A DNA stretch of 37,773 nucleotides from an uncultured Alphaproteobacteria bacterium. Its GTDB lineage: Bacteria; Pseudomonadota; Alphaproteobacteria; Rhizobiales; Beijerinckiaceae. The position numbers and the translations under genes were made by a program. Positions 12,779-16,913 of the stretch are shown piece by piece. The notes under the pieces are model-generated. The model saw only the letters and a program-made list of their open reading frames with translations. It had not been told where the DNA came from and did no database searches. How positions within the stretch are numbered: position 1 is the first letter of the stretch; the number at the start of each line of letters is the position of its first letter. The stretch lies in NCBI GenBank assembly GCA_937871825.1, contig CALMOK010000062.1:1984-39756 (forward strand), read 5' to 3'.

Positions 12779-14020
12779 ATGCGCCAGGCCCACGCTTCCC
12801 CCTTCGTTCACGCGGCGCCATCGCCGCTCGCGGGCCGGACCGTGCTGCAGATCATCCCGGCCTTGCAGGCGGGCGGGGCCGAGCGAACCGCCATCGACAT
12901 CGCGGGCGCGTTGGCGGAGGTCGGCGCCCGGGCGCTTGTCGCCACCACGGGCGGGCGCCTCGTGAGCGAGCTTCAGGCGAGGGGCGGGGTGTGGCTTCCG
13001 TTCCCGGCCGACACCAAGAACCCGGTCGCCATGGCGCGCAACGTGCTCAAGCTGCGGCGCCTCATCGCCGATGAGAAACCGGTCCTGGTTCACGCCCAGT
13101 CCCGTGCGCCCGCCTGGGTGGCCCTTTGTGCGACGCGGCTCACCAAGACGCCCTTCGTGACGAGCTATCACGGCATCTACTCGGGCACTCACGCCATCAA
13201 GCTGCGCTACAATTCCGTGATGGCGCGGGGCGACGCCGTGATCGCCAATTCCCGCTACACGGGTGACCTGATCGCGCGGGTCTATCCCTGGGCCGGCGCA
13301 CGGGTGCGCGTCGTCTCGCCCGGGGTCGAACTTCGCGAATTCCACCCGGGATCGGTCGACGTGTCGCGCGTGGAAGCGCTGCGCTCGGCCTGGGGGGTGG
13401 CGCCCGACCAGCGCATCGTTCTTCTGGCCGCCCGCCTCACCGATTGGAAAGGCCACCGCGTGCTGATCGACGCGGCCGACATCCTGCAACGGGAGGGGCT
13501 GACCGAGACCGTGTTCGTGCTGGCGGGCGACCATCAGGGACGCAACGGCTATGTCGCCGAACTCGACGCCCTTGTGGCGGCGAAGAAACTCGGCGGTATC
13601 GTCAAACGGGTCGGCCATTGCGCCGACATGCCCGCCGCGCTGTTGGCCGCGAGCGTTCTGGTTGTTCCATCCACCCGGCCCGAGGCGTTCGGCTTGTCGG
13701 CCGTGGAAGCCCAAGCGATGGGAACGCCGGTGGTTGTCACCGATCTTGGCGCCGTGCCGGAAACCGTTCTGGGGCCACCCGACGTCAAGCCCGAGCAGCG
13801 CACCGGATGGCGCGTCGCCCCCGGCGACCCCGCCGCGCTGGCGGAAGGCCTTCAATCCGCCCTGGCGCTTGGCGCGACGGCGCGCGACGGTTTGGCGATG
13901 CGGGCAAGAGCCCATGTGGAAGCGAAATTCTCCCGCGACGCTATGACGGAAGCCATGCTGGACGCCTATAGTGCGGTGATCGAGGAGCAGTTGACCAAGA
14001 TCCGGGGCCGCCATGCGTGA
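12779..14020 (+). CDS. Glycosyltransferase family 4 (GT4, GT-B fold)
   Basis: LQIIPALQAGGAERTAIDIAGALAEVGARALVATTGG...LLAARLTDWKGHRVLIDAADIL...PSTRPEAFGLSAVEAQAMGTPVVVTDLGAVPETV: GT4 EX7E-type motif. Start could instead be 12707. Confidence 0.92.
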   Translation: MRQAHASPFVHAAPSPLAGRTVLQIIPALQAGGAERTAIDIAGALAEVGARALVATTGGRLVSELQARGGVWLPFPADTKNPVAMARNVLKLRRLIADEKPVLVHAQSRAPAWVALCATRLTKTPFVTSYHGIYSGTHAIKLRYNSVMARGDAVIANSRYTGDLIARVYPWAGARVRVVSPGVELREFHPGSVDVSRVEALRSAWGVAPDQRIVLLAARLTDWKGHRVLIDAADILQREGLTETVFVLAGDHQGRNGYVAELDALVAAKKLGGIVKRVGHCADMPAALLAASVLVVPSTRPEAFGLSAVEAQAMGTPVVVTDLGAVPETVLGPPDVKPEQRTGWRVAPGDPAALAEGLQSALALGATARDGLAMRARAHVEAKFSRDAMTEAMLDAYSAVIEEQLTKIRGRHA

Positions 14021-14567
14021 GGAAGAGGGCGGCGTCCGGTTTCGGGCCGGCACGATCGACGATGCCGCCGCCATCGCGGATCTCCATACCCGAAGCTGGC
14101 GCGCGAATTACCGGGGCAGCCTGAGCGACGCTTATCTCGACGGCCCCATCGAGGGCGAGCGACGGGCCTTCTGGCAGGAGCGACTGCGCCACCCCCGCAC
14201 GGGTTTGTGGACGCTGGTTGCCGACGATGACACCCAGACGCTCGCCGGTTTCCTTTGCCTCCTGGCCGATCACGACCACCACTGGGGCACGCTGATCGAC
14301 AACCTCCATGTCGACCCGGCCCGCGTCCGCCAGGGAGTCGGGCGGGCGCTGATGCGAGCCGCCGCCGAGCACCTGCTGTTCGGCCTGCCCCGGCGGCCGA
14401 TCTACCTGTTCGTTCTCGAAAGCAACACGGCAGTGGCCGGCTTCTACCGCCACCTGGGCGGCGAGCCCGCCGAGCATTTGGTCAGCACGGAGCCGGACGG
14501 CAGCAGCCTTCCGGTGATCCGCTACGTTTGGCCGAGCGCGGCGGCCTTTGCCGGGGGAACGGGTTAG
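14013..14567 (+). CDS. GNAT family N-acetyltransferase
   Basis: VRFRAGTIDDAAAIADLHTRSWRANYRG...IDNLHVDPARVRQGVGRALMRAAAEHL...FVLESNTAVAGFYRHLGG; acetyl-CoA-binding R/QxxGxG/A motif. Start overlaps the end of the GT gene. Confidence 0.93.
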   Translation: MREEEGGVRFRAGTIDDAAAIADLHTRSWRANYRGSLSDAYLDGPIEGERRAFWQERLRHPRTGLWTLVADDDTQTLAGFLCLLADHDHHWGTLIDNLHVDPARVRQGVGRALMRAAAEHLLFGLPRRPIYLFVLESNTAVAGFYRHLGGEPAEHLVSTEPDGSSLPVIRYVWPSAAAFAGGTG

Positions 14568-14578
14568 GAAGCCCCGCC

Positions 14579-15649
14579 GTGGCATCGTTCCTGGCGTTCG
14601 TTGAAACGATGGCTGAAGCCCGGCGGGCGGTGGAGGGCGGGGCCGACGCCGTTTCACCAAGCGCCGGCGCCGTGCTGGACGAGGCGGAACTCCTCGCGAT
14701 CATTGGCGGCCGCGCAGCCCTTTGCCGGTGGGCCGGAGCGCCGCACGACCCTGCCGGGACACGGGGCCACGAGGCCAGCGTTCTCCTCCAGCCGAGCCGC
14801 TCGGCCTTCCCGTTCGAGGGACGGGTCCCCGGTCGGGACAGCCCGGCGACGATCGTGGTTTTCAGCGAGGCCCGCCCGTCGGCAGCCGATCTCGATGGTC
14901 TCGCCGCCAGCGGCCACTTGGGCGTGATGCTGGACGCGCCGGGACGGCTTCTCGATGCCGTGAGCCTGCCCGACCTCGCGGCGTTTTGCGAGGACTGCCA
15001 TGGGCGCGGGCTCCTGTGCGGCTTCTCGGGTGGGCTGGAGCCGCCCGACGTGCCGCGTCTACTGGCGCTCGGGCCGGACCTCCTGGCCTTTCAACGAGCC
15101 CTTCGGCCGGGGCGGGGGAGCGAAGCCGCCGGGTTCGACCCCCACGCGGTGCGGCTTGTCCGCGACCTAATCCCGCTGGCGCCCCATCGCTTGCTGGCGG
15201 GGCGTTCGCTCCAACCCATGCCGCAAGCCGGGCCCGTCGCGCATCCCCCGCAACTCGAGGGAACAACCCGGATCTTCGTTCGCGACCTCGTGGTCGAGAT
15301 GGCGATCGGCGCTTACGCCAGCGAACATGGGCGGACGCAGCGCGTGCGGTTCAGCGTCGAGGCGGATCTCGACGATCCTCGCGTTCGAGCCCAGGACACG
15401 CGCCAGCAGGCCTCGGGCGACCAGGACATGCGCGACGTCGTTTCCTACGATCTCCTCAGCGACGCCATCCGACAAGTGGCCGCCCGGGCCCATGTGGAAT
15501 TCGTCGAAACGCTGGCCGAAGCCATCGCCGAACGGGTTCTGGTTCACCGGCGCATTCGTGCCCTCACCGTCACGGTGGAAAAGCTCGACCTCGGCCCCGG
15601 GTCGGTCGGCGTCGAGATCTGGCGGAAGCGGGTCGACACGCCGCGTTGA
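14579..15649 (+). CDS. Two-domain fusion: N-terminal DUF556/MfnB-like [(5-formylfuran-3-yl)methyl phosphate synthase-like] + C-terminal dihydroneopterin aldolase (FolB-like)
   Basis: GTG start with GGAAG 7 nt upstream. N-domain: VETMAEARRAVEGGADAVSPS...HLGVMLDAPGRLLDAVSLPDLAAFCEDCHGRGLLCGFSGGLEPPDVPRLLALGPDLLAFQRAL, MfnB-like layout. C-domain: TRIFVRDLVVEMAIGAYASEHGRTQRVRFSVEADL...VVSYDLLSDAIRQVA...FVETLAEAIAERVL...LTVTVEKLDLGPG, FolB signature. Confidence 0.78.
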   Translation: MASFLAFVETMAEARRAVEGGADAVSPSAGAVLDEAELLAIIGGRAALCRWAGAPHDPAGTRGHEASVLLQPSRSAFPFEGRVPGRDSPATIVVFSEARPSAADLDGLAASGHLGVMLDAPGRLLDAVSLPDLAAFCEDCHGRGLLCGFSGGLEPPDVPRLLALGPDLLAFQRALRPGRGSEAAGFDPHAVRLVRDLIPLAPHRLLAGRSLQPMPQAGPVAHPPQLEGTTRIFVRDLVVEMAIGAYASEHGRTQRVRFSVEADLDDPRVRAQDTRQQASGDQDMRDVVSYDLLSDAIRQVAARAHVEFVETLAEAIAERVLVHRRIRALTVTVEKLDLGPGSVGVEIWRKRVDTPR

Positions 15650-15713: not shown

Positions 15714-16913
15714 TTGTACGTTCAAACTCCCGCATCGACCGGGTCAGCCCTCCCGCCCGCGTCGGGGCTGATCCAGCCCATCTTCGCGGGCCTGCTCGCC
15801 TCGGTCGTCGGGTTCGCCAGCACCTTCACCATCGTGCTGCAGGGCTTCCGGGCCGTCGGGGCAAGCCCGGGGCAGGCCGCCTCGGGGCTGCTCGTGATCT
15901 GCCTCGTCCAGGGTTTCCTGACGATCCTGCTGTCGGTGCTTTGGCGACAGCCGATCAGCATCGTCTGGTCGACGCCCGGTTCGGCGCTGCTGATCGGGAC
16001 GGGCGCGCAGGCCGGTGGCTACCCGACCGCCCTGGGGGCCTTCGTGCTGGCGGCCTTGCTGATCGTGGCGGCGGGGTCCTTCAAGCCTTTCGGTCGCCTA
16101 GTCGGCGCCATCCCGACCAGCCTCGCCAACGCCATGCTGGCCGGGGTGCTGTTCGAGATCTGCCTCGCCCCGGTGGAAGCGGCCAAGACCTCGCCCGCCC
16201 TGGTGCTGCCCATCGTCCTCGTCTGGATTCTGGCGTTGCGCTTCGCGCGCCGTTTCTCGGTGCCGATCGCCGTCGCGATGACGGCGCTGATCGTGGTCTT
16301 CGTCACCAAGCTGCCGGCGGGCGCCTTGGCCGACACCTGGCCGGCGCTGGTGGTCAGCGTCCCGAGCTTCAGCTGGCCGGCGACCGCGAGCCTGGTGCTG
16401 CCGCTCTTCATCGTGACCATGGCGTCCCAGAACGTGCCGGGCCTCGCGGTTCTCCACGCCAACGACTATCGGCCGAAGGTCGGCCCCATCTTCGTGGGAA
16501 CGGGGCTTGCCAGCATTCTCACCGCGTTTGGAAGCGGTGGGCTCCTTAACCTGGCGGCCATCACGGCCGCCCTTTGCGCCGGGCCGGAATCGCACCCCGA
16601 TCCCGCCAAGCGCTACCTGTCAACGGTGACGGGCGGGTTGGCCTACGTGCTGCTCGGCCTTTTCGCGGCCTTCGCGGCCGCTTTCACGCTCGCCGCCCCC
16701 CCTTCCATCGTCCAGGCCGTCGCCGGCCTCGCCCTGATGGGGAGCTTCGCCGGGGCACTGACGGCGGCGCTCGCGCGTCCGGACGCGAGGATCGCCGTTG
16801 CGGTGACGTTCGTGACGGCGGCCTCCGGGTTGACCCTGTTCGGCATCGGCGCGTCCTTCTGGGGCTTGGTCGCCGGAGGGCTGGTATTGGCGGTCGACCG
16901 GATCGGCCGTTGA
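15714..16913 (+). CDS. BenE-family benzoate/H+ symporter-like transporter (TTG start)
   Basis: SGLIQPIFAGLLASVVGFASTFTIVLQGFRAVGASPGQAASGLL...QPISIVWSTPGSALLIGTGAQAGGYPTALGAFVLAALLI...NAMLAGVLFEICLAPVEA; multiple TM segments and BenE motifs. Confidence 0.88.
   Translation: MYVQTPASTGSALPPASGLIQPIFAGLLASVVGFASTFTIVLQGFRAVGASPGQAASGLLVICLVQGFLTILLSVLWRQPISIVWSTPGSALLIGTGAQAGGYPTALGAFVLAALLIVAAGSFKPFGRLVGAIPTSLANAMLAGVLFEICLAPVEAAKTSPALVLPIVLVWILALRFARRFSVPIAVAMTALIVVFVTKLPAGALADTWPALVVSVPSFSWPATASLVLPLFIVTMASQNVPGLAVLHANDYRPKVGPIFVGTGLASILTAFGSGGLLNLAAITAALCAGPESHPDPAKRYLSTVTGGLAYVLLGLFAAFAAAFTLAAPPSIVQAVAGLALMGSFAGALTAALARPDARIAVAVTFVTAASGLTLFGIGASFWGLVAGGLVLAVDRIGR

What the first reader, a model, noticed from the sequence alone, without database searches (positions are those of the whole stretch)
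14579..15649. MfnB-like/FolB fusion whose MfnB half has no lysine: a possible repurposed C1-cofactor enzyme
Seen directly: one 356-aa frame joins a DUF556/MfnB-like half (GVMLDAPGRLLDAVSLPDLAAF...GLLCGFSGGLEPPDVPRLLALGPD) to a FolB-like half. The translation has only two lysines: one in the FolB segment LTVTVEKLDLGPG and one near the C-terminus. The first ~300 residues have none. Established knowledge: MfnB (methanofuran/methylofuran pathway) is a class I aldolase-like enzyme that works through a Schiff-base lysine. The usual DxKxP-type motif reads DAVSPSAG here, and the FxKxG-type motif region reads FPFEGRV. FolB features appear kept (GAYxxE...Q, SYDLL, VEK). Inference: the N-terminal half cannot do standard MfnB chemistry and may be a scaffold, ligand sensor or altered enzyme covalently tied to pterin synthesis. 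That would link the furan and pterin C1-carrier pathways (methylofuran and tetrahydromethanopterin).
Basis: partly seen in the sequence, partly recalled or inferred. Interest (0 to 1): 0.75.

Follow-up and report, generated by a model that had tools for sequence, protein, structure and literature searches.

The report
FolB carrying a dead MfnB half
A folate-making enzyme in this bacterium carries, fused to its front, a second enzyme (MfnB) that lost its active site after the ancestors gave up their methanol/formaldehyde pathway; the same inactivation happened many times in related bacteria, yet the dead half is kept and, in several of them, still guarded by natural selection.

Summary
ORF 14579-15649(+) is one 356-aa protein: a degenerate MfnB-like barrel (PF04476) joined to FolB (PF02152). 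Lysines occur only at 335 and 350; the positions of MfnB's Schiff-base K27, K85 and K155 are lost or deleted, D151 is kept.

The claimed furan-pterin link does not exist in this genome: it has no mch, ftr or fae, and no other MfnB or FolB. The fusion is widespread in its family (Methylocystis, Methylocapsa, Methylovirgula, Beijerinckia) and in some Acetobacteraceae and Aureimonas. K27 is present in every mch+ genome tested and missing only where mch is absent; a prediction written down before testing 38 more records came out 14/14 (K27-lost) and 22/24 (K27-kept). K27 changes at least 10 times on the tree.

So the MfnB half dies after loss of the C1 pathway, while FolB, nearly always the only copy, stays intact. 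Less expected: the dead half is not simply a neutral relic. Close dead pairs in relatives show pN/pS of 0.07-0.17, and a fusion-specific motif (LExPDxxRL) stays at 93-100% in 30 dead proteins while the catalytic lysines go. I think the dead half now serves FolB folding or assembly; that step is inferred.

The parts
14579..15649 (+). mfnB-folB fusion gene (GTG start, 356 aa, stop included)
   Evidence: conserved gene order in G004 and G005
14579..15181 (+). N-terminal pseudo-MfnB half (aa 1-201): predicted 8-strand barrel, about 200 aa against 223 in live relatives, no lysine
   Evidence: AF2 block pLDDT mostly 85-96 except aa 51-90; Foldseek to 4rc1/4u9p MJ1099; lengths and K counts
14645..14665 (+). 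aa 23-29 DAVSPSA: place of the MfnB motif DxKDP (D25 and Schiff-base K27), lost or deleted
   Evidence: alignments; K27 Schiff base from PMC6604932
14747..14833 (+). aa 57-85: low-confidence, eroded part of the barrel including the K85 position (F79)
   Evidence: AF2 segments under 50: 57-64 and 73-85
14927..14950 (+). aa 117-124 MLDAPGRL: D151 kept (D119); the K155 stretch (xxKGxG) deleted
15029..15061 (+). aa 151-161 GGLEPPDVPRL: fusion-specific motif LExPDxxRL kept in live and dead fusions, absent from unfused MfnB
15182..15262 (+). linker (aa 202-228), mostly low pLDDT (202-220 under 50)
15263..15646 (+). FolB half (aa 229-356): dihydroneopterin aldolase with E249, Q254, Y290, E310, K335 kept
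15371..15415 (+). about 10 extra residues (within aa 265-279) in the FolB half, not seen in the aligned relatives
   Evidence: alignments A1 and A4
14013..14567 (+). upstream GNAT acetyltransferase, 11 bp before the fusion gene; same order in G004 and G005; not C1-related
15714..16913 (+). downstream BenE-type transporter; same order in G004 and G005; not C1-related

Best explanation
The gene is this bacterium's only dihydroneopterin aldolase (FolB, folate synthesis). Its N-terminal half descends from a working MfnB (the furan-forming enzyme of methylofuran synthesis) to which folB was fused in an ancestor that had the H4MPT/methylofuran pathway. When the lineage lost that pathway, selection on MfnB catalysis ended and the active-site residues were lost; the same happened repeatedly in other lineages. 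The frame cannot simply break, because stops or frameshifts upstream would remove the essential FolB half. Beyond that, the dead half is still under purifying selection in several lineages and keeps one fusion-specific motif, so it most likely serves the FolB half structurally (folding, solubility, or assembly of the FolB oligomer). Shown: fusion, loss of active-site residues, absence of pathway marker genes, parallel pattern across genomes, single FolB, selection on dead halves of relatives. Inferred: direction of events, FolB activity, the structural role. Confidence is for the dead-MfnB-after-pathway-loss reading; the structural role alone I put near 0.6.
For: Own genome: no mch, ftr or fae; one PF04476 hit and one FolB hit, both this gene. 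Fusion in many family members. Residue table against mch: every mch+ genome in the table has K27; g1, g4, g16, g23, g25, g27, g35 and g43 contain mch- genomes without it, and g16, g27 and g43 contain both kinds. Prediction written first, tested on 38 records: 14/14 K27-lost are mch-, 22/24 K27-kept are mch+. Of six K27-kept mch- genomes, four have ftr or fae, so mch was probably missed. Tree set: 57 mch+/K27+, 31 mch-/K27-, 6 mch-/K27+, 0 mch+/K27-; at least 10 changes of K27. Live fusions often lie within about 10-16 kb of mch or ftr. FolB single-copy in 51 of 54 genomes. Retention in 30 dead proteins: motif 93-100%, other live-conserved N-half sites mean 58%, K85 20%, K155 23%, FolB sites mean 90%. 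Purifying selection in close dead pairs: pN/pS 0.07, 0.09, 0.17 over aa 1-168, P < 1e-10.
Against: The structural role is not shown; selection against misfolding of a fused domain would give a similar signal. In the window's own genus the N half is much more relaxed (G000/G004 pN/pS 0.75, P 0.05 over aa 1-168, near saturation), so the purifying-selection case rests on relatives. G123 (99% complete) and G454 keep K27 without mch, ftr or fae. Same-genus G001-G003 do without the fusion, using a stand-alone FolB, in G001 and G003 outside this gene order, so the dead half is dispensable over evolution. The independent-pairs test on starred branches alone is underpowered: 7 pairs, median p 0.25, none in the opposite direction.
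Confidence: 0.85

Rival explanations
1. The dead MfnB half has been repurposed: it binds a phosphate- or pterin-type ligand and regulates FolB allosterically, or is an altered enzyme without a Schiff base.
For: Purifying selection on dead halves in close pairs; barrel still predicted; conserved motif after strand 7; g16 members keep K85, D151 and K155 and have a single K27-to-T change.
Against: The dead copies share no new conserved site that I noticed beyond the motif that live copies also have; live-conserved N-half sites outside the motif are kept only 58% on average; Aureimonas has deleted much of the middle of the barrel, which is hard to reconcile with one shared ligand site.
Confidence: 0.12
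2. Pure hitch-hiking: the dead half has no role and stays only because it lies in frame upstream of an essential enzyme.
For: Progressive shortening (about 160-200 aa in many dead copies against 223); same-genus genomes without it; relaxed N half in the window's genus.
Against: pN/pS of 0.07-0.17 with P < 1e-10 in three close dead pairs; motif sites at 93-100% across independent losses.
Confidence: 0.25
3. The N half is still a working MfnB or a furan-pterin link with unusual catalysis, as the first reader considered possible.
For: D151 kept; fold kept.
Against: Schiff-base lysine and the other catalytic lysines missing; the pathway marker genes are missing from the genome.
Confidence: 0.02
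4. Sequencing or assembly error, or contamination.
For: The genome is a draft of 338 contigs.
Against: Same gene order and loss of the same lysines in G004 (3 contigs) and G005; about 30 dead homologues in other genomes.
Confidence: 0.01

Closest known systems
MfnB, (5-formylfuran-3-yl)methyl phosphate synthase (MJ1099; Orf22 of methylotrophs), PF04476
   Same: Sequence and predicted barrel fold; live family members have D25, K27, K85, D151, K155.
   Different: The window copy has lost K27, K85 and K155 and part of the barrel; it is fused to FolB and has a motif that unfused copies lack; the pathway is missing.
FolB, dihydroneopterin aldolase, PF02152
   Same: Catalytic residues kept; apparently the only FolB in the genome.
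   Different: Carries a 200-aa N-terminal pseudo-MfnB domain and about 10 extra residues inside the domain.
FolB fused to another folate enzyme, e.g. the bifunctional dihydroneopterin aldolase / 6-hydroxymethyl-7,8-dihydropterin synthase of Streptococcus pneumoniae (2cg8)
   Same: FolB as one half of a two-domain protein (matched by Foldseek).
   Different: There both halves are named as pterin/folate enzymes; here the partner came from furan-coenzyme synthesis and is inactive.
Loss of methanotrophy in Beijerinckia (Tamas et al. 2014, as cited in PMC10316377)
   Same: Beijerinckia sp. L45 (L226/G116) has a dead fusion and no mch, in line with reported loss of C1 metabolism.
   Different: That work concerns the metabolism; I found no mention of this fusion protein in the papers searched.

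Membership tests
MfnB / 4-HFC-P synthase (PF04476) | Profile match over the curated cut-off | tested here: met
   40.1 bits against 22.4, but only profile positions 134-210
MfnB / 4-HFC-P synthase (PF04476) | MfnB barrel fold | tested here: met
   Foldseek to 4rc1/4u9p E 1.3e-7, with a poor rmsd of 8.4; eight strands in the model
MfnB / 4-HFC-P synthase (PF04476) | Schiff-base lysine K27 | tested here: not met
   Lost or deleted; role of K27 from PMC6604932
MfnB / 4-HFC-P synthase (PF04476) | K155, D25 and D151 of the active site | tested here: not met
   D151 kept; K155 deleted; D25 position unaligned or S
MfnB / 4-HFC-P synthase (PF04476) | Genome has the pathway (mch, ftr, fae) | tested here: not met
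MfnB / 4-HFC-P synthase (PF04476) | Furan-phosphate synthase activity | not testable with these tools
   needs an assay
FolB (PF02152) | Profile match over the curated cut-off | tested here: met
   69.8 bits against 31.8
FolB (PF02152) | Conserved Glu/Gln, Tyr, Glu and Lys of the active site | tested here: met
   E249, Q254, Y290, E310, K335, all 100% in live and dead fusions; Y290 aligns with Tyr53 of the Y. pestis enzyme and K335 with a lysine of 3v9o
FolB (PF02152) | Fold | tested here: met
   3v9o E 5e-11, TM 0.81 by target
FolB (PF02152) | Dihydroneopterin aldolase activity | not testable with these tools
   needs an assay

The most novel reading that the evidence does not exclude
Loss of a C1 pathway has repeatedly turned a bifunctional MfnB-FolB enzyme into a pseudoenzyme-FolB in which the dead barrel became a needed structural or allosteric part of FolB, with LExPDxxRL as its contact site; the dead domain is then a marker from which past methylotrophy can be read in non-methylotrophs.
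Probability: 0.4. Interest if true: 0.72.

Novelty: new variant of a known kind. Interest (0 to 1): 0.58.

Why it matters
It is a natural series of repeated experiments on what happens to one half of a fused enzyme when its pathway disappears. Related genomes show stages: live, only K27 changed (g16), barrel eroded (Beijerinckia, the window's genus), barrel partly deleted (Aureimonas). It makes two things testable: whether a dead domain becomes indispensable to its fusion partner, and whether K27 in the fusion can serve as a sequence marker of present or past H4MPT/methylofuran C1 metabolism. It also warns annotators: PF04476 scores above its cut-off here although the active site and the pathway are missing.

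Tried and rejected
Lysine poverty by itself was dropped as evidence because the genome is lysine-poor and the adjacent GNAT protein has none. IQ-TREE codon omegas were computed but not relied on, because the dead clades have saturated tree lengths; fixed-omega likelihood tests failed for syntax. Rfam and tRNA scans of the window found nothing. Literature searches found no description of the MfnB-FolB fusion in the held library, which misses most subscription journals, so priority is not proven.

Full report
OBSERVATION. The frame 14579-15649(+) is a single open frame of 356 codons with a GTG start. It carries FolB (aa 232-347) and a partial MfnB match (aa 104-176), both above Pfam's cut-offs. 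The only lysines are K335 and K350. Mapped on MJ1099 through a live relative, D25 and K27 fall in DAVSPSA, where the alignment leaves gaps; K85 is replaced by F; the stretch with K155 is deleted; D151 is kept. K27 forms the Schiff base, and two lysines and two aspartates are essential (PMC6604932).

STRUCTURE. AlphaFold2 with 44 relatives gives mean pLDDT 80.6 and pTM 0.65; the N half shows eight strands with high confidence except aa 51-90, and the linker is of low confidence. Foldseek finds FolB structures first and MJ1099 (4rc1) at E 1.3e-7.

SURROUNDINGS. Upstream are ylxR, nusA, rimP, an alpha/beta hydrolase, a glycosyltransferase and a GNAT protein; downstream a BenE transporter, a UbiG-like methyltransferase, aspartokinase, ptsP and prfA (ylxR, ptsP and prfA named from sequence by eye). 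The order from nusA to BenE and ubiG is the same in G004 and G005, with the fusion in the same place. No C1 gene is adjacent. In live relatives the fusion is often near mch or ftr: for example G047 C122 (ftr 1.6 kb, mch 8.4 kb, fae 11.4 kb, fusion 17.2 kb) and Aureimonas altamirensis G451 C1 (ftr 182 kb, mch 189 kb, fae 192 kb, fusion 198 kb).

GENOME CONTENT. The window's genome has no mch, ftr or fae, no other PF04476 gene and no other FolB. It is 96% complete in 338 contigs, so one missing gene could be a gap, but three marker genes missing from it and also from G004 and G005 is not plausibly a gap.

COMPARATIVE TEST. Among relatives, mch was searched in the fusion-bearing genomes. In the residue table every mch+ genome has K27. 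K27 is lost in mch- members of genera g1 (the window's), g4, g16, g23, g25, g27, g35 and g43; in g16, g27 and g43 live and dead copies occur in one genus according to mch. Four mch- genomes kept K27. I then took 75 named loci, read K27, wrote down the expectation and searched mch in 38 of them: all 14 without K27 lacked mch, 22 of 24 with K27 had it. Dead cases new to the second set include Rhodopila globiformis (K to Q), two MAGs (K to T), Consotaella and seven Aureimonas, while two Aureimonas altamirensis strains are live. Of the six K27+ mch- genomes, G277, G255, G251 and G470 have ftr and/or fae; G123 and G454 have none of the three. Those two are real exceptions, perhaps recent losses.

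ON A TREE. A FolB-plus-strand-7/8 tree of 94 proteins needs at least 10 changes of K27; the table is 57 (mch+ K27+), 0 (mch+ K27-), 6 (mch- K27+), 31 (mch- K27-), Fisher P 3e-19, which ignores kinship. The kinship-aware pair test on starred branches has only 7 pairs and is not significant alone (median p 0.25); none goes the wrong way.

WHAT IS KEPT. In 30 dead proteins the FolB sites conserved in live copies are kept at 90% on average and the catalytic ones at 100%; N-half sites outside the motif at 58%; K85 20%, K155 23%, D25 30% (K27 is zero by choice of the set). Seven sites of GxLExPDxxRL all rank among the top eight of 52 (93-100%). Unfused alphaproteobacterial MfnB has GSLxxxDIxxL or the like instead, so E, P and R belong to the fusion. 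In Aureimonas much of the middle of the barrel is gone but the motif stays, and a model of that protein has pTM 0.82, although MJ1099 is no longer among the 50 best matches.

SELECTION. Close dead pairs: L231/L233, L220/L221 and G174/G189 have pN/pS 0.07, 0.09 and 0.17 over aa 1-168, with P < 1e-10 against neutrality, like live pairs (0.11-0.33). More distant dead pairs are more relaxed (0.34-0.56), and G000/G004 most (0.75). So the half is under relaxed but real constraint in several lineages; in the window's own genus the constraint is weak outside the C-terminal part (0.54, P 0.008).

CONCLUSION. The window protein looks like a working FolB with a catalytically dead MfnB half left from a lost C1 pathway; the dead half is probably kept as a structural element.

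LIMITS. Function is inferred from sequence; no assay. Genome absence depends on completeness. The literature search is limited to open-access papers.

Noticed in passing
G123 (L123:353-1555:+): A 99% complete genome keeps an intact-looking MfnB half (K27, K85, D151, K155) but has no mch, ftr or fae; possibly a very recent loss of the pathway or another use of the furan.
   Followed up: partly
L095, L096, L097, L098 (G154, G174, G189, G020): One clade has a single early change, DCKDP to DCTDP (K27 to T), with K85, D151 and K155 kept and mch absent: a first step of decay or an altered enzyme.
   Followed up: partly
L114-L116 (G001, G003, G002): Three same-genus genomes have a stand-alone, diverged FolB and no MfnB domain; in G001 and G003 it lies outside the gene order seen in the window.
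   Followed up: partly
G039:C1:1273278-1273613: A genome of genus g35 (the genus of Beijerinckia sp. L45) has a second, stand-alone FolB besides its dead fusion; one of few genomes with two FolB.
   Followed up: no
window 15371-15415: About 10 extra residues inside the FolB half (DPRVRAQDTRQQASG region) found only in the window protein among the aligned relatives.
   Followed up: no
window 14013-14567: The upstream GNAT acetyltransferase has no lysine in 184 residues, so lysine-free proteins are not rare here.
   Followed up: yes
L104 (G232): The reading frame of the fusion is disturbed in this genome (an unresolved residue and a frame change in the N half); not interpreted.
   Followed up: no
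L185, L198, L200, L207, L218, L219, L222 and L201, L204, L220, L221, L229, L231-L233, L236: The MfnB-FolB fusion also occurs in Acetobacteraceae (Rhodopila, Acidisphaera) and Aureimonas, suggesting old origin or horizontal spread beyond one family.
   Followed up: partly
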